From a virus, in IMG/VR virus record IMGVR_UViG_3300046525_000104, positions 1 to 22,200 of that record: DNA of 22,200 bases; one strand, 5' to 3'. A program made the position numbers and the translations under genes. The notes under the pieces were generated by a model that was not told the origin of the DNA, did not search any database, and saw nothing but the letters and a program-made list of their open reading frames with translations. Below are positions 4,822 to 21,631 of this stretch, piece by piece. Position 1 is the first letter of the stretch, and each line of letters starts with the position of its first letter.

Positions 4822-5304
4822 ATGGCAACAAAAAAAGGTGTTTTATCTAATGGGACCGCTGTATGGATTGTCCACGGTGCTGTGCCCACATTAACAAAGA
4901 TGGGTTGTATTAAAGCATTGGCATTAGGAGACGACAGTGCAGCTGAAATTAATACAACATGCTTAGAAGAAACAAGTACTGCGACTTCTGAGTATGGACT
5001 TGTTACTCCTGGCGAAGGTTCAGTGCAAATCGATACTGATCCTAAAAATCAATCGCATATGACATTACTGCAACTTGCAGCGAATAAAGAAAAAGTTGAA
5101 GTGTATGTTGGTTGGTCTGATGGAATTGCAGAACCAACATTAACAGGCAGTGATATTGAGCTACCAGAAACACGTACATGGTCTAGCTTTGAAGCTATTT
5201 TAAGAAAAGGTTCTCCAGTGTTTGCACTAGATGCCATGGTTAATCACACCATTCCAATGAAACGCCAATCAGAAGTGATTGATCAGTTTAAGGTGAATCC
5301 ATAA
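4822..5304 (+). CDS. Major tail tube protein (lambda gpV-like)
   Basis: This 160-aa protein is the probable tail tube subunit. It starts MATKKGVLSNGTAVWIV, then shows the beta-rich pattern of siphophage tube proteins: a conserved C-L-E-E-T-S-T (classically T-x-L-x-S) strand, EYGLVTPGEGSVQIDTDP, a short helix (MTLLQLAANKEKVEVYVGWSDG), and the FEAILRKGSPVFALDAMVN strand ending in a short tail. The shape and position (after tail terminator, before G/GT chaperones and tape measure) fit lambda gpV; length is a little under gpV because there is no C-terminal Ig-like domain. GAGGAGAAG is a strong ribosome site. TAA and the next ATG share one base. Confidence 0.87.
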   Translation: MATKKGVLSNGTAVWIVHGAVPTLTKMGCIKALALGDDSAAEINTTCLEETSTATSEYGLVTPGEGSVQIDTDPKNQSHMTLLQLAANKEKVEVYVGWSDGIAEPTLTGSDIELPETRTWSSFEAILRKGSPVFALDAMVNHTIPMKRQSEVIDQFKVNP

Positions 5305-5798
5305 TGGCTAAACTTACCTTAAATGCGGCAAAGGCTGCTGTTGGAACAGGTGCTTTTGCCGAAAAGACAATTAAGTTTCGTGATTCGAAAGGGGCAGAAT
5401 TTGAAGGTGAAATTCTTGTAAAGCGCTTGTCGCATGATGAAACAATAACCGCTGTTGATGCATGGGATTTGGAAGATCGGAAGACGGCAACGATTGATCA
5501 AATTACTAAGGCCATTATTTTTAAAGCAATTTATACTTCGGTTGATGAGCCATTTTTCCCAATGGTTCAAAGCACAGGTGAAGTTTCATCTGAAATTGTG
5601 GATGTGATGTATCGCGTAGCCGATGAGGTTAATGATTTTTCGGGAAAGGAGTGGATCTGGAAGAAGAAGAGTTCTGGTGTGAACTCGTCCTCAACGGAAT
5701 TGGTGGAAGAACCATTGAAAAAGCCAAAAAAACGATCAGCCCGCGCGAGTTTGCAATCTGGAGAGCGTATAGAGAAAAAAGAGGATCACTCTTCATAG
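5304..5798 (+). CDS. Tail assembly chaperone G
   Basis: This 164-aa protein is the equivalent of lambda gpG, which binds the tape measure and keeps it soluble until the tube assembles. The N-terminal 115 residues look globular (KLTLNAAKAAVGTGAFAEKT, then L-V-K-R-L-S-H-D-E-T, then IIFKAIYTSVDEPFF). The residues after the slippery site are charged and low-complexity (lysine/serine/glutamate), so the zero-frame tail looks expendable. The zero frame ends at TAG 5796-5798. A GGGAAAG slippery site at 5642-5648 diverts a fraction of ribosomes into the -1 frame to make the longer GT protein. The gene lies directly after the tube gene, as in lambda. Confidence 0.88.
   Translation: MAKLTLNAAKAAVGTGAFAEKTIKFRDSKGAEFEGEILVKRLSHDETITAVDAWDLEDRKTATIDQITKAIIFKAIYTSVDEPFFPMVQSTGEVSSEIVDVMYRVADEVNDFSGKEWIWKKKSSGVNSSSTELVEEPLKKPKKRSARASLQSGERIEKKEDHSS
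5642..5648 (+). promoter_or_regulatory. Programmed -1 ribosomal frameshift site GGGAAAG
   Basis: GGGAAAG is the same heptamer used by lambda G/T. It lies in the required phase, G-GGA-AAG, with the zero-frame codons reading TCG GGA AAG GAG. After slipping back one base the ribosome reads GGA GTG GAT CTG and continues in the T frame to 5965. The predicted GT product is 220 aa (115 from G plus 105 from T). A stimulatory downstream structure was not worked out. Confidence 0.9.
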
Positions 5799-5965
5799 GG
5801 CGAAGAATTGAGCAGGGCTTTGGTAATTTAATGGCCCATTACACAATGTTTAAAGTGAAAGATCCTGAATCCGTCTCTGCTTTGACTTATATGCCACATG
5901 AAGATGCTCCAGTGACAACTTTTGAAGAAGAACGTTTGAAAGCGATTAAAAAGAAATCTGCCTAG
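5651..5965 (+). CDS. T extension of the GT tail assembly chaperone (made by -1 frameshift)
   Basis: This -1 frame runs on from the slippery site at 5642-5648 to TAG 5963-5965 and gives 104-105 residues fused to the first 115 residues of G. It probably has no start of its own: the GTG at 5651 lies inside G without a good ribosome site, so it should be read as the C-terminal part of a 220-aa fusion. In lambda, gpGT recruits tail tube protein to the tape measure, and the T part is the tube-binding half. The sequence VDLEEEEFWCELVLNGIGGR, then a helical S-P-R-E-F-A-I-W-R-A-Y segment and a C-terminal lysine-rich end, is compatible with that role. It overlaps the last 148 bases of G. Confidence 0.85.
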   Translation: MDLEEEEFWCELVLNGIGGRTIEKAKKTISPREFAIWRAYREKRGSLFIGRRIEQGFGNLMAHYTMFKVKDPESVSALTYMPHEDAPVTTFEEERLKAIKKKSA

Positions 5966-6000
5966 GTAGGTTTCTTTTCATAAACATTTCAATTAAATAT

Positions 6001-6028
6001 AGCTACTTGTGATGAGTGGCTTTTTTTT
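6001..6028 (+). terminator. Rho-independent terminator after the GT chaperone
   Basis: AGCTACT, loop TGTGATG, AGTGGCT (one G-T wobble), then eight T. The terminator ends where a promoter for the next gene begins. Confidence 0.75.
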
Positions 6029-6055
6029 GTGCATTAACTTAGTATTTCCCATAAT
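6027..6055 (+). promoter_or_regulatory. Candidate sigma-70 promoter of the zinc-ribbon membrane gene
   Basis: TTGTGC at 6027-6032 and CATAAT at 6050-6055 are separated by 17 bases. Transcription would start near 6062, giving a short leader with a GGGGGAG ribosome site. The promoter sits directly behind a terminator, as expected for an independently expressed prophage gene. It is a pattern match only. Confidence 0.45.
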
Positions 6056-6078
6056 TTATAAAACTCTTTGGGGGAGAA

Positions 6079-6732
6079 ATGGCAGTTAATCCATGTAAAG
6101 AATGTGGTGGGCCAGTGAGTGATAAAGCTGAAAGTTGTCCCATGTGTGGTGCAAGGCAAAAGAAAAAGACATCGGTGCTAGCTTGGATTGGTTTAGTACT
6201 TTTGGTTTTGGCTGGTATTGGAATGTGTACAGAAAAAACTTTAGACAAAAATCCATCAGCTTCAGCGTCTACTCAATCCAATGAAAGTGGTGCAGCTGAG
6301 CCGATTCAAAATTGGGAATATAAAAACTCAAAAGACGAAATGCGTGGTATCGAAACCAAATTTGCAAGTACAGTTAGCGCCAACACGGTAAATTTTGATT
6401 TCCCATATAACGGTGGATCTAAGTTAATTATGGCATTACGTAAAACTGGAACGGATACGGATGTGATGTTATCAATTTCAAAAGGGCAAATTCTATGCGA
6501 TTTCCGAAATTGTGAAGTAGCCTTTAAGTTTGATAATGGGAATGTTCAATCAATTACTATGTCTAGACCATCAGACCATTCTTCTGACTTGCTGTTTGTA
6601 GCCTATGACAAGACAAAACATAATATTATTAACGAACTAAAAAAAAGTAAGAAGTTAGTTGTAGAGGTTCAGTTTTATCGTGAAGGTAAAAAGCAGTTCA
6701 CCTTTGATGTAAGTGGTCTTAATTGGGATTAG
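6079..6732 (+). CDS. Zinc-ribbon membrane protein, probable lysogenic-conversion gene
   Basis: This 217-aa protein interrupts the otherwise universal chaperone-tape measure junction. Residues 6-23 form a short zinc ribbon (C6-x2-C9 and C20-x2-C23). A hydrophobic segment at about 33-49 follows (VLAWIGLVLLVLAGIGM), then a Ser/Asn-rich linker to about residue 75 and a folded 140-aa domain rich in beta strands. The topology suggests a zinc ribbon inside the cell and the large domain in the periplasm. It is not a known tail component. With a promoter just upstream and terminators on both sides it has the build of a moron expressed from the prophage. Candidate roles such as superinfection exclusion or envelope modification are inference. 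Confidence 0.85.
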   Translation: MAVNPCKECGGPVSDKAESCPMCGARQKKKTSVLAWIGLVLLVLAGIGMCTEKTLDKNPSASASTQSNESGAAEPIQNWEYKNSKDEMRGIETKFASTVSANTVNFDFPYNGGSKLIMALRKTGTDTDVMLSISKGQILCDFRNCEVAFKFDNGNVQSITMSRPSDHSSDLLFVAYDKTKHNIINELKKSKKLVVEVQFYREGKKQFTFDVSGLNWD

Positions 6733-6755
6733 TTTTTCATCATTTAGTTTTAATC

Positions 6756-6780
6756 AAAGCACCCTAAAGGGTGCTTTTTT
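6756..6780 (+). terminator. Rho-independent terminator before the tape measure gene
   Basis: AAAGCACCC, loop TAAA, GGGTGCTTT: a perfect 9-bp stem with a run of six T. It ends the zinc-ribbon gene and lies 18 bases upstream of the tape measure start. Confidence 0.88.
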
Positions 6781-6797: not shown

Positions 6798-9341
6798 ATG
6801 AGTGCCAAACTTGGAACGTTAACACTAGATCTAGTCACCAAAATTGGCAACTTTGTAGGGCCAATTAAAGAAAGTGAAAAGCAGGTCAAAACAAGCTTTG
6901 CCAGTATGAAAAAGGATGTACTTGCATATGGGGCTGTAGCAGTATCTGGTGCGACAGCAGCTGGAGCAGCAGTGTTTGCAATGGCAAAAAATTATGCTGA
7001 TGCAGCGCAGGAGTTAAAAACATTTGCAGCCATTTCTAATGCGACAACACAAGAATTTCAGGCAATGTCTGCAGCGGCTCAATCGGTAGATATTAACCCA
7101 GATAAATTGGCAGACCAATTAAAAGACTTTAATGAAAAGCTCGGAGAGTTTATTACCATCGGTTCGGGTGGTGCCGTCGACTTCTTTGAACAAATCGCTA
7201 TTCAAACGGAAGGTAGTGCTGAGGGGGCGCGAAAACTTGCACTTGAGATGCAGAACTTATCAGGCCCACAAGCACTGCAGCTTTATGTCGACAAGCTTGA
7301 GGAGGCAGGTGTTTCCCAACAGCAAATGTCTTTCTATCTGGAATCCATGGCTTCAGATACCACTAACCTGATTCCATTACTTAAAAATGGTGGGGAAGGG
7401 TTTAAATTCTGGGCAGATGCTGCAGAGCGTTATGGCTTAATCATGGATGAATCTGCGATCCAAAAAGCGTCTGAATTTAAAGTTCAGTTAAAGCTTTTAG
7501 ATATGCAGGTACAAGGGGCTAAAAATCAGTTTATCCAAGGCTTAATGCCAGCACTTGTTTCTGTTGGTGATGCGATGACAAATGGTTCAAATCAGACAAA
7601 TAGAATGTCGGATGCTGGTGAAACATTAGGGGATGTATTTAAAGGTGTAGCTGCAACAGGAATGGGTGTTTATGCGGTTGTTCAAATGCTAGCAAATGCA
7701 ATTGCAGGGCTTGCACTTACCGCAGTAGACGCCAAAAAAATGGTTGATGGGGCTGGTGAGCAGGGCTCCTTTGCCGATAGATTACCAGGAATAAAGCTTG
7801 GTAAGGCGTTAATTACTGGAGGCATCTTAGCAAAGGCACCTAATAGTGGTGTAGGAATGGCTGCCCAAGATAATCGTGCTATAGCGGATGACTCTTTAGC
7901 TGTGATTAAAAAAATGTACACGGATACAGTAAATGAGTCCGTGGCAGCACAGGCCAAATTAGACAAGTCGCAGGCTGGAGTAATTAAAGGTTCAGACGAG
8001 TGGATTAAAAAACAAAATAAGGCTGCAGATGCAACAAATGCTGCAACTAAGGCCTTAAAAGAACAGCAGGCACAGGCGCGAGATTCCATTGCATATGAAT
8101 ATTTGGATGATTTCGCAAAGTTTGCCGAAGACTATAAACGTCAGGTGACGGAAATTGGTAAAGCAAACTTTGGTGCTGAAGAGGCTTCATATATCGCTAA
8201 AGCCAAAAGCCGTTATGAGTTTGCTGAAGAAATGTATCTTCGTCAGATTACTGAGGAAATAAATACCTTTAAGTGGTCTGAAGAGGAAAAGCTTAAATAT
8301 GCGTTTGAAACACAGCGCATTATGATTAGTGAATCGGGCAAATATAATAGCGAACTGAAAGAGTTAAAGCTGAAAGCACTAGATGAACAGCATGCGATTG
8401 AGTTAAGAAAAACTCAGTGGCATGCACTTGAAATGCGCCAAACCTTAGAAGATTCAATCATAGGTCTTTCTGGTGGCGCTGATGATATTTTTGCGAAATC
8501 TACGATGACTCCGCAAGAATATTCTCAGTGGAGTCTGGAAAGTGATCGTTCAAAGGCACAAGGTTCATTAAACAACCAGCGTGTTGGTGTTGAACGAGAC
8601 ATTATGACGAGTGATACTTACACGACAGATGATGAACGTTATGAAGCACTTTTGCAGGCACATCAAGAATACCGTGATGGGTTGTATGCTTTAGATCTGC
8701 AATATGACCAGCAAGTTAAAGAACTCGCACAAAGTCAACATGATGCACAAATGGGGATATGGCAGGACTTACTGACTCGAACTGGAACCATATTTAATGA
8801 TATGGCTGCCATGGTCAAAGAAACATCTGGTGAATCTAGTGCAGCCTATAAAGCGATGTTCTTGGTGAATCAGGGTATCTCCATGGCTCAAGCACTGATT
8901 AATACTGAAGTTGCAGCCACAAAAGCCATGGCTGAGGGTGGAATGGTTGCAGGTATTCCAATGGCTACAGCAATACGTGCTTTGGGTTATACATCTGTAG
9001 CAATGATCGCTGCTCAAACCATTGCTGGTATGGCGCACGATGGTATTGATAACGTGCCATATGAAGGGACATGGCTTTTAGATAAAGGTGAGCGGGTAGT
9101 CGATAGTAGAACGAATGCTGATTTGAAGAGTTACTTGAATAATTCATCCAATTCCTCAAATGGCGACATCATCATTAATAACAATGGTTCAAACAAAGTT
9201 GCTGCAACCAAAGGTAGCGATGGGAAAACTTACGTGACGATTGAAGAAGTTGAGCAATTTGTGTCGCAATCCATAGCTAGACCGAATAGCCGAATTTCAA
9301 AAGCTGTTGGCCAAAATACTACAGCGAGTCGGAGAAGATAA
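6798..9341 (+). CDS. Tail length tape measure protein
   Basis: This 847-aa protein determines tail length, fills the tube, and is ejected at infection. The start is ATG 6798 (SAKLGTLTLDLVTKIGNFVG), with TGAGG upstream; the in-frame GTG at 6771 lies inside the terminator stem. Features: a hydrophobic Ala-rich segment at 41-63; long helical, Gln/Ala/Lys-rich stretches; a hydrophobic segment at about 285-320; and a C-terminal part at about 685-750 with alternating Ala/Met/Gly hydrophobics followed by HDGIDNVPYEGTWLLDKGER, typical of tape measure C-termini. By the usual 0.15 nm per residue it predicts a tail of about 125 nm. No lytic transglycosylase or peptidase motif was noticed. Confidence 0.93.
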   Translation: MSAKLGTLTLDLVTKIGNFVGPIKESEKQVKTSFASMKKDVLAYGAVAVSGATAAGAAVFAMAKNYADAAQELKTFAAISNATTQEFQAMSAAAQSVDINPDKLADQLKDFNEKLGEFITIGSGGAVDFFEQIAIQTEGSAEGARKLALEMQNLSGPQALQLYVDKLEEAGVSQQQMSFYLESMASDTTNLIPLLKNGGEGFKFWADAAERYGLIMDESAIQKASEFKVQLKLLDMQVQGAKNQFIQGLMPALVSVGDAMTNGSNQTNRMSDAGETLGDVFKGVAATGMGVYAVVQMLANAIAGLALTAVDAKKMVDGAGEQGSFADRLPGIKLGKALITGGILAKAPNSGVGMAAQDNRAIADDSLAVIKKMYTDTVNESVAAQAKLDKSQAGVIKGSDEWIKKQNKAADATNAATKALKEQQAQARDSIAYEYLDDFAKFAEDYKRQVTEIGKANFGAEEASYIAKAKSRYEFAEEMYLRQITEEINTFKWSEEEKLKYAFETQRIMISESGKYNSELKELKLKALDEQHAIELRKTQWHALEMRQTLEDSIIGLSGGADDIFAKSTMTPQEYSQWSLESDRSKAQGSLNNQRVGVERDIMTSDTYTTDDERYEALLQAHQEYRDGLYALDLQYDQQVKELAQSQHDAQMGIWQDLLTRTGTIFNDMAAMVKETSGESSAAYKAMFLVNQGISMAQALINTEVAATKAMAEGGMVAGIPMATAIRALGYTSVAMIAAQTIAGMAHDGIDNVPYEGTWLLDKGERVVDSRTNADLKSYLNNSSNSSNGDIIINNNGSNKVAATKGSDGKTYVTIEEVEQFVSQSIARPNSRISKAVGQNTTASRRR

Positions 9342-9399
9342 TGATTTTTTTCATGAAAACTTTTTGTTAAATTGTTCTGGATTAAATAAGGGGTGTTAA

Positions 9400-9852
9400 A
9401 TGAAAAAAATATTAGTGGGTATTTTCCTTGGGTGTTTTGCTTTTGTGAGTGGCTGTACTTCAATTCAAGTAAATAATGCGAAATCTTTTAATGCAGAATC
9501 ATTAAAGTACATTTGTATTGCGCACAATCCAAAAGTCATTATTAAAGACTTTGACGGTATTGTTGAACGAAGCTTTGCGCGTCATGGTATTAGTTCAAGA
9601 ACGTTTAATAATGAAGCCGATTTGAAAAATTGTAATACTGTATTGCATTACACAGCCTTGCGTTCTTGGGATTTTGCACCCTATATGACGTATGCACAAT
9701 TTAATTTACTTAATGATGGCCAGCAGGTTTCAGAGTCTTCTTTTAAATTAAAAGGAAACGGTGGTTTGGCGCTAAATAAATGGCGTAGCACTGAAACCAA
9801 AGTAAATGAATTGGTTGATGTTCTATTAGGTGTTAAACCGAGCGTAAATTAA
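9400..9852 (+). CDS. Small lipoprotein, probable lysogenic-conversion gene
   Basis: This 150-aa protein has a clear lipoprotein signal: MKK, a hydrophobic core ILVGIFLGCFAFV, and lipobox V-S-G-C with the modified Cys at 19. The mature part is about 130 aa with a short helix and several strands; an N-terminal motif FNAESLKYICIAHNPKV and a C-terminal segment with L-x-x-W-R-S-T-E-T-K-V-N-E-L are noticeable. It resembles small outer-membrane lipoproteins of gammaproteobacteria (the Sbal_3080-type family is a candidate, not verified). Asp at +2 is absent (Thr), so Lol sorting would send it to the outer membrane. It lies between tape measure and minor tail genes, where a tail protein is expected, and is followed by a terminator. 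The upstream promoter is unclear. Confidence 0.82.
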   Translation: MKKILVGIFLGCFAFVSGCTSIQVNNAKSFNAESLKYICIAHNPKVIIKDFDGIVERSFARHGISSRTFNNEADLKNCNTVLHYTALRSWDFAPYMTYAQFNLLNDGQQVSESSFKLKGNGGLALNKWRSTETKVNELVDVLLGVKPSVN

Positions 9853-18334: not shown

Positions 18335-18949
18335 TTATTTCCCGCTTTTACAATCGCTATAATTTAATTTAATTTCATGTTTTATACTATTTTTTTCAAG
18401 TAATGCCGTCAACTGCTCTTTAGAGCAATTTTCGTCAGTTGCGGTCAAAATCATACCTCCTAACATCAAGAGATATATTACGAAAAGGATTTTCGCACAA
18501 AATAATGCATAATAAGATACGCTGTAATATTTGGTTTTTATTAAATTTGTTACCATATTTTGATTTACGTAGGTGCTATATGCTTTAGCAATATAAAAAT
18601 AACTTCTGTTATCAGAGTATTGTTGTATTTTATCAAAAGTCTCTTTTCCAATCGGCATATTCTGAATAGTGATCAAGCGTAGACACTTTAGAGTGAAAAT
18701 TAGACAGATAATATTACTAATTACGTATAATATTATCAAAAGCCAATAAAATGTTTTAAACGTTAAGTGTGAGTTGCTATAGAGTTCAGTCACTGTGGAG
18801 TTGGCAGCGATTGCTGTAAATGCAACTATAAAAATACTTGTCAATGTTAGTAACTTGTTTGCTTTATCTTCTATTCGAACAAATCTTTCAACTTCTTTTT
18901 CGTATTCTAGCTTTGTAACTTCATATAAGAGTTCATACTTTGGGTTCAC
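18335..18949 (-). CDS. Membrane protein with three TM segments, possible phage-exclusion or effector protein
   Basis: This 204-aa protein starts with GTG. Residues 1-30 are a charged amphipathic helix (YEVTKLEYEKEVERFVRIEDKA) leading straight into TM1 (33-49). TM2 spans about 64-88 and TM3 about 143-169. A helical cytoplasmic loop (90-142) links TM2 and TM3, and the C-terminal 35 residues would be periplasmic with Cys175 and Cys200. The helix-D-K-A-x-x-L-L-x-TM layout recalls membrane effectors of bacterial defence systems (Pycsar/SLATT-like), but no specific family is proven. It lies between umuC and a terminator, with a 54-aa gene behind it. GC is lower than that of its neighbours, a sign of separate acquisition. 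Confidence 0.75.
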   Translation of the reverse strand: MNPKYELLYEVTKLEYEKEVERFVRIEDKANKLLTLTSIFIVAFTAIAANSTVTELYSNSHLTFKTFYWLLIILYVISNIICLIFTLKCLRLITIQNMPIGKETFDKIQQYSDNRSYFYIAKAYSTYVNQNMVTNLIKTKYYSVSYYALFCAKILFVIYLLMLGGMILTATDENCSKEQLTALLEKNSIKHEIKLNYSDCKSGK

Positions 18950-19027: not shown

Positions 19028-20326
19028 TTACTTATTTATAGTCAACATACCTTCCCAGCTAAAATAATCCCTCGTCAAACTCCCTCGACTCATCGACCAG
19101 CCACGGTTCGGCAATTTACATGGGCCGATCGCAAGCTTCTTGTCCCCAAACCTTTCCTTAACGCCTTCCATTGCAAGCTGCAGCTTCTCATTGCGTTCGA
19201 TAGATTCAACATCTGCGAGTAAGTCAGGAATATAGGCTGCTTTGTTCTCGATACACGTTAAAATCACACCGCACTTTTTAAACTCAATACCTTCTTGAAA
19301 TAGTTCATCCATTTGCTTCATCACGGCTTTATTCATGACTGCAGCGGAATCTGTCGGTTCAGCAAAACCAACGCTGATTGATTTCTTATAAAACGGTTTA
19401 TTTTTATCAAATGGATTGGACTCAGCAAATGCAATCACACAACCGCATAAGCTTTTATCCTCACGTAGACGTTTAACAGCTGACTGCAGGTAATCGCTCA
19501 TTGCTTCAGACAGTGATTCTTTATCCGTTACACGTTGACCAAATGACCTCGATGAGATGATTTGTTTCTTGGCGGGTGGGGCATGTTCAATCTCTATGCA
19601 GGAAATACCTTGCAACTCGGCAACCGTCTTGGCCATAACTATGGAAAAGAGTCTTTTCATATTTCGTGGTTCGGTTCGGGTGAGATCCTGAACGGTATGC
19701 ACACCCATGGCATTCAGTTTTTTGCTGTGCTGTCGACCGACTCCCCAAACCTCAGATACATCGATCAAACTAAAAAAGTAATCCTTATGTTTTGGGTCCA
19801 TAGATACTAAATTGCAGACACCCGAAAAGCGCTTGGCTTTCTTCGCCATATGGTTGGCAATCTTCGCTTCAGTTTTACTTCGACCAATGCCGACCGATAC
19901 AGGCAAGCCGATCCACTTAGAAATACGCTCACGCATGTCTTGAGCGTATTCAGTTAAATCGAATTTATGCTCATATGCGGTGAGATCTAAAAAGCATTCA
20001 TCGATCGAGTAGATCTCATGCTCTCCTGGTGCAACATATTCGGCAAGGATACTGTGAAAGCGTTTAGACATTTCTGCATAGACTTTATAGTTGCTCGAAA
20101 GCACTTCTACATTGTGCTTTTCAACAATGTCTTTGATTTGGAATAGGGGAACACCCATTTTAATTCCAAGATCTTTTGCTTCCTGCGAACGTGCAACTGC
20201 ACAGCCGTCATTGTTTGAAAGCACAATAACTGGTTTGTTATTCAACTTAGGATTGAATACACGCTCACAACTGACGTAGCAATTGTTCACGTCAATTAAG
20301 GCATAGATCTTGTTTTCGCTTCTCAT
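19028..20326 (-). CDS. umuC: UmuC-type Y-family DNA polymerase (Pol V catalytic subunit)
   Basis: This 432-aa protein is the catalytic subunit of translesion polymerase V. The N-terminal [18 protein letters not shown] contains the first metal-binding Asp. Further Y-family motifs are [29 protein letters not shown] (catalytic Asp-Glu), [14 protein letters not shown] and the helix-hairpin-helix region ([11 protein letters not shown]), with little finger and a C-terminal UmuC tail. The start is ATG 20326, overlapping the umuD stop (ATGA); a longer frame from TTG 20362 would run through umuD. A small stem (CTGAA/TTCAG) lies just before the start and holds the GAAGAG ribosome site, which may couple translation to umuD. 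Length is normal. Confidence 0.96.
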
Positions 20327-20889
20327 CTGAAGCTCTTCAGAACGCGGGTGACCACACCCCAAATAATAAATTCTTGTCCTTCACTAAAATGAATGTCGTC
20401 ATAATCTGGATTTTCAGCTTTTAGCCAACACACACCATTTTCTTCACACATGAGACGCTTTACGGTGAACTCATTGTCGACCAGTGCAATCACAATGTCC
20501 CAATGCTTTGCCTCAAGACTACGGTCGACAATCAACTCATCGCCAATATCGATACCAATATTGATGAGAGAAAGTGAATTAACACGCACGATGAACGTAG
20601 CTGCTGGATTCTTAATGAGGTGTTCATTTAGGTCTAGGGTCTTATCAACATGATCTTGGGCAGGGGAAGGGAAACCGGCTTGAACGCGCTCAGTGGCCAA
20701 TGGGATAGCCATATGTGTGACTGGATCAACTTGGCGTATGTGATCGATTTCAGGATCGGCTTTAGCCTTTTTGAGAAAAGCTTTGATTTCTAAAACAGAA
20801 GAGTTTGGTACACGGATAAGTGTGGTCAACTCAGAGCGTTTTCGCCCAGCACCTGGTCTTGTGCCACCGTGCATTTTTAGATCATTCAT
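20323..20889 (-). CDS. umuD: UmuD-like autoproteolytic subunit of Pol V (S24 family)
   Basis: This 188-aa protein is the partner of UmuC. After RecA-stimulated self-cleavage the short form would activate Pol V. The cleavage pair Ala71-Gly72 (V-Q-A-G-F) and the Ser107/Lys144 dyad (N-S-L-S-L and F-T-V-K-R-L) are visible. The usual G-D-S-M around the serine is replaced by N-S-L-S-L, which is unusual. The N-terminal arm before the cleavage site is about 70 aa instead of the 24 of Escherichia coli UmuD and contains a basic RPGAGRK motif that might bind DNA. ATG 20889 is chosen over TTG 20895, which lies closer to the operator, and over ATG 20874. It forms an operon with umuC. Confidence 0.92.
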
Positions 20890-20896
20890 AGCCAAA

Positions 20897-20921
20897 CTTG
20901 ATTTCTGTAACAGATTTCAAG
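20897..20921 (-). promoter_or_regulatory. SOS-type operator of umuDC (25-bp near-perfect palindrome)
   Basis: The arms read CTTGAwwTCTG and CAGAwwTCAAG around a central T-w-A, with only the w positions breaking perfect symmetry. It lies downstream of the -10 box and 8 bases before the umuD ATG, a position for repression. Acinetobacter lacks LexA and represses DNA-damage genes with UmuDAb and DdrR at related TTGAAA-type palindromes (established for the genus; the exact consensus was not checked here). Confidence 0.75.
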
Positions 20922-20950
20922 ATTGTAGATTTCGCTCAAAATAAATTCAA
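20922..20950 (-). promoter_or_regulatory. umuDC promoter
   Basis: On the - strand TTGAAT (-35, 20945-20950) and TACAAT (-10, 20922-20927) are separated by exactly 17 bases. Transcription would start inside the palindrome. A good match at both boxes and perfect spacing make this the best promoter in the window. Confidence 0.7.
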
Positions 20951-20980
20951 ATTTAAAAGCTGTGGATAATCAATGTACCT

Positions 20981-21631
20981 TCAAATTAAATTAGGTTGAG
21001 CTCCATTTTCGGATAAGCGGGATTTAGGAAAAGTGATGTACTCATCTTGCATTTCAAAGAAGAACTCATGCGCCTCTTTAAAGCTGCAATTTAACCATTC
21101 TTCGCGGTATTCGTCAGGTATAACGATGATCGAGCGCTTCTCATCTTTAGGCTTGTGAAATTGCTTCATGAAGGGGTGTTTATCGGCATTGATGGTCAGC
21201 ATGCTCATTGATCGGATTTGCTCCCCATCGATGACGGCATTCTCATATATCGCCGCCACGGTAAAGGGCATACCATCCTCACGTGCAATACCATACCAGT
21301 GCGATTTGCCATCTATGTATTTAGGCTCAAAGATGGTTTCAACAGGGATCAAACCAAACTGAGACTTATGCCAAGCATCTCTAAAACTGGGTTTCTCAGC
21401 GACCGTTTCAGTCCGGGCATTGTAGGTGTACTTGCCGAAACTCTTTTCCTTGGCCCACTTTGGAATCATTCCAAAATTAACGGATCGCCACTCGATCTTT
21501 CCGTCATTAGAAAAGATCAAAGGAGATGGGTAATTCGGGAAAATGTCTTCAGGGAACACCAATTGATCAGGTTCAGGGAGATCTAACAGAAATGCACGAT
21601 TCTTTCTGATCGCTTCGAAGTTTGCACACAT
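20981..21631 (-). CDS. SRAP domain protein (HMCES/YedK-like)
   Basis: This 216-aa protein crosslinks to abasic sites in single-stranded DNA and protects them. The nucleophile Cys2 is next to the start Met, as the reaction needs. Asn71 (Y-N-A-R-T-E), Glu102 (F-E-P-K-Y) and His159 (Q-F-H-K-P) fit the YedK catalytic residues (Cys2, Asn75, Glu105, His160). The usual G-F-Y-E-W around the glutamate is here T-I-F-E-P, a divergent branch. Start ATG 21631 has AAGG upstream and a TATAAA box at about 21645. It stands with umuDC as a DNA-damage set but has its own leader after the 49-aa ORF. Confidence 0.92.
   Translation of the reverse strand: MCANFEAIRKNRAFLLDLPEPDQLVFPEDIFPNYPSPLIFSNDGKIEWRSVNFGMIPKWAKEKSFGKYTYNARTETVAEKPSFRDAWHKSQFGLIPVETIFEPKYIDGKSHWYGIAREDGMPFTVAAIYENAVIDGEQIRSMSMLTINADKHPFMKQFHKPKDEKRSIIVIPDEYREEWLNCSFKEAHEFFFEMQDEYITFPKSRLSENGAQPNLI

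What the first reader, a model, noticed from the sequence alone, without database searches (positions are those of the whole stretch)
6001..6780. Independent zinc-ribbon membrane gene inserted at the chaperone-tape measure junction
Terminator, promoter (TTGTGC-17-CATAAT), GGGGGAG ribosome site, gene and terminator form a complete moron in a place where chaperone and tape measure are normally adjacent. A CxxC-CxxC zinc ribbon and one TM carrying a large outer domain are not tail components.
Basis: partly seen in the sequence, partly recalled or inferred. Interest (0 to 1): 0.55.

Follow-up and report, generated by a model that had tools for sequence, protein, structure and literature searches.

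The report
Exchangeable membrane-protein gene before tape measure
A small self-contained gene for a membrane-anchored protein sits just before the tail-length gene of an Acinetobacter phage; related phages keep many different exported proteins in the same slot, often behind one shared promoter-like DNA element, most likely so that the dormant virus can keep rival phages from injecting their DNA.

Summary
The observation largely holds. Gene 6079-6732 (217 aa) lies between two terminator-like hairpins at the tail chaperone-tape measure junction. Two relatives with empty sites align to 5968 and resume at 6773: 804 bp here, 52 bp there. The promoter hexamers named are weak; the better signal is a composite element at 6018-6048 (T-run, 10 nt, TTAGTATTTC). 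The protein has a zinc ribbon, one TM helix and a beta-rich, probably periplasmic domain (phrog_1848, VasI/TagO-related). The slot recurs: occupied in 71 of 77 related loci, the gene before the tape measure looking exported in 68 of 71. The exact composite element gives 87 sites in 80 viral contigs; 80 of 83 following genes look exported, and a tape measure lies within 4.5 kb of 66 sites. HK97 gp15, a known exclusion moron, occupies the same slot, and one locus has a Pfam superinfection-immunity protein there. Best reading: a lysogen-expressed exclusion cassette acting on tape-measure-dependent DNA entry. Promoter activity, expression and exclusion are untested.

The parts
5969..6772 (+). Inserted block (moron) relative to empty sites L176/L178, where 52 nt (L176) stand in its place
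   Evidence: blastn breakpoints
6001..6028 (+). Terminator 1 (hairpin and T-run) after the chaperone frames; its T-run is also the left half of the composite element
   Evidence: a similar hairpin in empty site L176 (by eye)
6018..6048 (+). Composite promoter-like element: T-run, 10 nt, TTAGTATTTC (variant of GGTTTCTTTTT-N10-TTAGTATNTT)
   Evidence: 3 mismatches, 0 of 100 shuffles; exact in relatives
6027..6055 (+).
   Evidence: read directly; 8 of 12, below the scan threshold
6070..6076 (+). G-rich ribosome-binding stretch GGGGGAG
   Evidence: G-rich stretches near this place in many of the relatives printed
6079..6732 (+). 217-aa zinc-ribbon / TM / ectodomain protein
6094..6153 (+). Zinc ribbon aa 6-25 (C6, C9, C20, C23 invariant in 38 of 38 aligned sequences)
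   Evidence: below Pfam's own cut-offs for the window protein
6172..6228 (+). Single TM helix aa about 32-50, preceded by KKK (N-in, C-out inferred)
   Evidence: sequence; helix 33-47 in the model
6310..6726 (+). Beta-rich ectodomain aa 78-216 (phrog_1848; C140 and C145 invariant in 38 of 38, possible disulfide)
6756..6780 (+). Terminator 2, directly before the tape measure RBS
   Evidence: terminator-like hairpin here in 46 of 46 distinct stretches of occupied loci, 1.9 expected
5304..5798 (+). Tail assembly chaperone (phrog_1749)
5651..5965 (+). gpT-like frame, -1 relative to the chaperone
   Evidence: phrog_5297/337
6798..9341 (+). Tape measure protein, start taken as ATG 6798
   Evidence: phrog_2854/1506

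Best explanation
The gene is a lysogenic-conversion cassette (moron) in a recurrent slot between tail chaperone and tape measure. It is transcribed from its own sigma-70-like promoter, which begins in the T-run of the preceding terminator, and its own terminator separates it from the tape measure. The product is held in the inner membrane by one helix, with the zinc ribbon in the cytoplasm and the beta-rich domain in the periplasm. From there it most likely interferes with the tape-measure-dependent DNA entry of superinfecting tailed phages, in the way of HK97 gp15. Shown here: insertion, slot, element, terminator-like hairpins, domain layout, exchange of anchor and ectodomain. Inferred: promoter activity, membrane topology, lysogenic expression, exclusion, and the tape measure as target.
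For: Empty sites. Same slot as HK97 gp15, annotated there as moron product followed by a terminator and the tape measure; [quoted passage not shown] The slot gene of L244 is a Pfam superinfection immunity protein, E 2.6e-17. Gene directly before the tape measure exported-like in 68 of 71 genes and 14 of 17 families, against 54 of 588 genes and 8 of 62 families elsewhere in these loci, Fisher p 1.2e-7 on families. Element search: 80 of 83 following genes exported-like, 24 of 25 families; tape measure within 4.5 kb of 66 of 87 sites (some of these contigs are the same as, and the element was learned from those). The ectodomain occurs behind a lipoprotein-like signal 0.6 kb before a tape measure (L302, 55% identical) and behind lipoprotein-like or Sec-like signals elsewhere (L322, L013, L010), so it probably acts outside the cytoplasm. 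In 23 of the 24 cI-near loci a cI-like gene lies upstream on the same strand. Two of 38 relatives weakly match phrog_8545, named superinfection exclusion Sie-like, best E 1.4e-4 (which part matches was not found out, and none of 10 members scanned listed it). Slot family tracks tape measure similarity more than tail tube similarity.
Against: No activity or expression data. No sequence similarity to gp15; no PADLOC match at E 0.01; no solved structure at E 0.001 or better. The tape measure correlation is confounded by physical linkage. Six of seven full-length matches in bacterial genome contigs have no gene that my tail profiles label within four genes (one, L020, has an unlabelled 1404-aa ORF nearby). 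Four of six empty sites also carry a terminator-like hairpin (by eye), so a terminator before the tape measure does not by itself prove an independent unit. The window's copy of the element has 3 mismatches, one of them in the last base of its -10-like half. Exported morons can serve the host in other ways.
Confidence: 0.55

Rival explanations
1. A lysogenic-conversion protein that changes the host envelope or its interactions (stress, predation, competition), with no role in superinfection; the slot is only a tolerated insertion point.
For: Exported morons of mixed function are common (general knowledge); relatives on plasmids without listed phage tail genes; most of the slot proteins scanned match no family of known function.
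Against: Preference for the place beside the tape measure, a known exclusion moron (gp15) and a superinfection immunity family in the same slot, and cI-side relatives.
Confidence: 0.27
2. A late-expressed helper of tail assembly or of DNA injection, made with the tail genes and acting at the membrane.
For: Codirectional with the tail genes; some gene stands there in 71 of 77 loci of this tape measure group.
Against: Six loci have no ORF of 60 aa or more there; 17 families without detected similarity fill the place; relatives lie near cI or in opposite orientation; terminator-like hairpins on both sides.
Confidence: 0.08
3. A modulator of the host type VI secretion system through its VasI/TagO-like domain.
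For: Profile match to a Pasteurella prophage protein that passes the Pfam VasI threshold.
Against: PF11319 is not listed for the window protein (E up to 1) and not among the 25 shown of 46 families for 38 relatives; phage tail context. None of 10 other slot proteins scanned matched it at E 0.01.
Confidence: 0.06
4. A blocker of tail assembly like Tab of JBD26, acting on newly made tape measure protein in the cytoplasm.
For: Tab is a prophage moron that targets the tape measure (PMC10884400, passages read).
Against: The conserved domain here follows lipoprotein-like or Sec-like signals in homologs, and Tab is encoded between the terminase genes.
Confidence: 0.04

Closest known systems
HK97 gp15 superinfection exclusion moron
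   Same: Same slot between chaperone/frameshift product and tape measure, annotated terminator before the tape measure, hydrophobic N-terminal stretch
   Different: 62 aa, no zinc ribbon, no domain of this kind; no sequence similarity
Imm_superinfect (PF14373; a link to T4 Imm is recalled)
   Same: A member occupies the same slot in L244
   Different: Unrelated protein; the window protein does not match it
TP-J34 Ltp
   Same: Membrane-tethered exclusion lipoprotein whose target is the tape measure (passages of PMC10883804 and PMC11480721)
   Different: Gram-positive host, HTH repeats; not compared by sequence here
VasI / TagO (PF11319)
   Same: Ectodomain related to a TagO-annotated Pasteurella protein
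   Different: No PF11319 match for the window protein, tail genes as neighbours, zinc ribbon and TM anchor instead
phrog_1848, phrog_14275, phrog_38187
   Same: Sequence matches E 8.9e-10, 5.8e-12, 1.2e-14
   Different: All of unknown function, so they add no mechanism

Membership tests
Phage moron | Inserted between genes that are adjacent in relatives | tested here: met
   L176 and L178
Phage moron | Own terminator | tested here: met
   (sequence prediction only)
Phage moron | Own promoter | tested here: inconclusive
   Named hexamers weak; conserved composite element present as a 3-mismatch variant; activity not measured
Phage moron | Base composition differs from flanks | tested here: met
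   GC 0.354 at 6251-6750 against 0.416 (5251-5750) and 0.436 (7001-7500); a modest difference
Phage moron | Expressed from the prophage | not testable with these tools
   needs RNA-seq of the lysogen
HK97 gp15 exclusion protein | Position before the tape measure | tested here: met
HK97 gp15 exclusion protein | Sequence homology | tested here: not met
   hhalign probability 0.2
HK97 gp15 exclusion protein | Blocks DNA entry | not testable with these tools
   no activity data
VasI/TagO (PF11319) | PF11319 match | tested here: not met
   not listed for the window protein (E up to 1), nor among the 25 shown of 46 families for 38 relatives
VasI/TagO (PF11319) | Ectodomain homologous to a PF11319 protein | tested here: met
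   hhalign probability 99.4, E 2.6e-21; the PF11319 match of that protein (aa 22-96) overlaps the aligned part (50-196) only partly
VasI/TagO (PF11319) | Type VI gene neighbourhood | tested here: not met
   tail genes on both sides
Imm_superinfect (PF14373) | PF14373 match of the window protein | tested here: not met
   met by the L244 slot protein
Ltp lipoproteins | HTH repeats behind a lipoprotein signal | not tested
   no Ltp sequence was compared
Tail structural protein | Conserved at the place in relatives | tested here: not met
   6 of 77 bare junctions and 17 families in the other 71

The most novel reading that the evidence does not exclude
Acinetobacter-type siphophages carry a cassette system: units of the form promoter element, exported-protein gene, terminator are stacked and exchanged at one slot before the tape measure, recombination occurring in the shared terminator T-run and promoter element, which keep a fixed register. 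The cassettes (some 25 protein families, with anchors and ectodomains recombined) form a repertoire of periplasmic exclusion proteins matched to tape measure types.
Probability: 0.4. Interest if true: 0.8.

Novelty: new variant of a known kind. Interest (0 to 1): 0.6.

Why it matters
A single DNA element finds whole families of unknown exported phage proteins and gives them one testable function, control of DNA entry at the tape measure. It would turn the known case HK97 gp15 into a more general rule about where tailed phages keep exclusion genes, and would help predict which prophages make Acinetobacter resist other phages.

Tried and rejected
Tail component: rejected because of empty sites, unrelated replacements and relatives elsewhere. 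Fold comparison with solved structures gave nothing at E 0.001 or better; the 11 viral model matches at that level were uncharacterized, hypothetical or unnamed, one being a DUF5067 protein. PADLOC gave nothing for this protein at E 0.01, Rfam nothing in the window at gathering thresholds. E. coli genomes: no blastn match for two relatives (collection of 5,426 genomes). Phage records: no near-identical DNA to the window. The 14-mer AATTAGTATCTTGT alone gave 120 or more stretches of mixed viral contigs; their contexts were not studied, and the composite pattern was used instead. A second element, TTGTTARATT, was not specific (9 distinct sites at slot genes, 10 elsewhere), so no claim is made, although the window has one (9364) before its post-tape-measure lipoprotein. 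Correlation with the tape measure (57 of 77 loci usable, 50 after removing near-copies) is kept only as weak support. In a sample of the order of an Alcanivorax genome, 16 of 390 genomes matched, mostly by the zinc ribbon only; contexts not studied. In script a label called KilAN was seeded with a wrong ORF; it entered no count. Papers: the HK97 gp15 paper is not held; its content is cited through PMC10883804 passages or recall. None of the nine searches that ran listed a paper on this protein family or on the element, judged from titles and abstract starts; (zinc ribbon, moron, prophage, transmembrane) found 0 papers.

Limits of counts: gene calls are mechanical ORFs; export is a hydropathy rule (an uncharged 12-mer of mean hydropathy 1.9 or more in the first 55 residues; with cut-offs 1.6 and 2.2 the family counts are 15 and 12 of 17 against 11 and 8 of 62), not a trained predictor; families are single-linkage clusters at E 1e-5; many loci are near-copies. 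For the junction survey 77 of 80 loci were used; L231, L238 and L239 were left out because the match does not include the tape measure start; one locus (L202) had no chaperone hit, so 2.5 kb before the tape measure was taken.

Full report
The window is a 22.2-kb virus record, by its tail genes a siphophage. The host is most likely Acinetobacter: all 16 plasmid-collection records with similar DNA are Acinetobacter, though the 12 rows listed cover only 1-7% of the window. Gene order: capsid, tail tube, tail assembly chaperone with a -1 frame, the gene in question, tape measure, further tail genes.

Observation. The gene lies at 6079-6732 between two terminator-like hairpins. The hexamers TTGTGC and CATAAT exist with a 17-nt spacer but match only 8 of 12 positions (threshold). 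Two related contigs without the gene, L176 and L178, align to 5968 and again from 6773, which defines an insert of 804 bp where L176 has 52. That 52-nt stretch carries a hairpin resembling terminator 1 of the window (by eye), so the cassette seems to sit between that T-run and the tape measure leader.

The protein. Zinc ribbon (aa 6-25), one helix (about 32-50) and a beta-rich domain (81-217 at 84-96 mean pLDDT per 10-residue block). C6, C9, C20, C23, C140 and C145 are invariant in 38 of 38 aligned sequences. The ectodomain matches phrog_1848 and, by profile, a TagO-annotated protein of a Pasteurella multocida record, next to phage regulator genes, which passes the VasI threshold. The same ectodomain follows a lipoprotein-like signal in an A. 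variabilis plasmid protein and in viral contigs L302 and L322, and a Sec-like signal in a Salmonella prophage between gpL- and gpK-like genes (signals judged from sequence). L302 lies 0.6 kb before a tape measure; for L322 none was seen in the 1.55 kb held. The ectodomain is therefore probably periplasmic. By eye, other ribbon-anchored ectodomains (L163 type with NSFGGY, L168 type) also occur behind lipoprotein-like signals (L367, L399), so anchors and ectodomains seem to be recombined.

Where the family lies. Of 80 viral loci kept (of 181), 68 match beyond the ribbon: 37 are followed at once by a long ORF (36 with a tape measure profile hit), 24 lie within 4 kb of a cI-like gene (23 with it upstream on the same strand; mostly near-copies of the Pseudomonas phage gene), and 7 are otherwise or cut short. 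Of the 12 ribbon-only loci, 7 are directly followed by a tape measure hit and 2 by a long ORF without a hit. Citrobacter and Pantoea records carry relatives at the same annotated junction. Against this, of 7 full-length matches in bacterial genome contigs only the Pantoea one is next to a labelled tape measure.

The slot. A search with the tape measure, not using the inserted gene, gave 80 loci, 77 usable. Six have no ORF of 60 aa or more in the junction. In the other 71 the gene directly before the tape measure has an export-like N-terminus in 68 cases, 14 of 17 families, against 54 of 588 genes and 8 of 62 families elsewhere on the same strand of these loci. Seventeen of the 71 are zinc-ribbon proteins of this family. 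All 46 distinct stretches between that gene and the tape measure have a terminator-like hairpin; shuffles give 1.9. HK97 has gp15, annotated as moron product, in the same place, followed by a terminator and the tape measure. L244 has a superinfection immunity protein there.

The element. TTAGTATNTT occurs at 24 distinct slot gene starts of 13 families and at 2 distinct places elsewhere on both strands of 707,455 bases. In all 24 it follows a run of T at the same distance, which puts TATNTT 17 nt after TTTCTT (C in 19 of 24), a spacing normal for a sigma-70 promoter although the -35 letters are poor. The exact composite GGTTTCTTTTT-N10-TTAGTATNTT was then sought in the viral contigs: 93 stretches, 80 loci given, some of them contigs already seen. 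They hold 87 sites, seven loci having two; 83 sites are followed by an ORF, 80 of them exported-like, in 25 single-linkage families; a tape measure lies within 4.5 kb of 66 sites, was not seen for 8, and 13 have under 1.5 kb left. The window has a variant with 3 mismatches at 6018-6048, its only match. Many relatives outside this group (for example L145, L157) lack the element; short extended-10-like stretches there were seen by eye only.

Mechanism. Membrane-tethered proteins that probably act in the periplasm, encoded beside the tape measure, apparently with their own promoters, and a known exclusion protein in the same slot: the simplest function is exclusion at DNA entry. A paper passage states that gp15 and Ltp exclusion is overcome by changes of the tape measure region (PMC10883804). 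In 50 dereplicated loci, slot family correlates with tape measure identity after correcting for tail tube identity (partial r 0.21-0.34, permutation p 0.002), while the reverse partial values are 0.02-0.12; the tape measure is also the nearer gene, so linkage may explain this. The role of the zinc ribbon is not known; it may be an anchor or a cytoplasmic contact.

Verdict. The gene resembles exclusion morons by position and layout, not by homology. The wider finding, one promoter-like element serving some 25 families of exported proteins in one slot, was not found in the papers searched (listings; passages of five papers read).

Noticed in passing
5304-5965: Chaperone frame and a -1 frame that could be joined at a run of seven A (A AAA AAA, about 5726-5732), fitting the usual programmed -1 frameshift of tail chaperones.
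   Followed up: partly
9400-9852: Sbal_3080-family lipoprotein directly after the tape measure; by eye, similar lipoproteins occur before the tape measure in other loci (L185, L415), so cassettes may move between both sides. A TTGTTAAATT stretch lies at 9364.
   Followed up: partly
18335-18949 (-): AT-rich gene for a membrane protein, phrog_23273 (E 5.2e-12, unknown function) and a weak PADLOC match PDC-M42A (E 0.0011); a possible defence gene.
   Followed up: no
19028-21631 (-): UmuC-like (by eye), UmuD-like and SOS-response-associated-peptidase-like genes at the end of the record; similar DNA on Acinetobacter plasmids.
   Followed up: no
L005 2113-2925 and the L217-type loci: Antirepressor-like genes (by eye) and small reverse-strand genes also lie in the chaperone-tape measure junction.
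   Followed up: no
L187 2502-3890: A transposase-like ORF (by eye) sits directly before the tape measure, so the slot also takes insertion elements.
   Followed up: no
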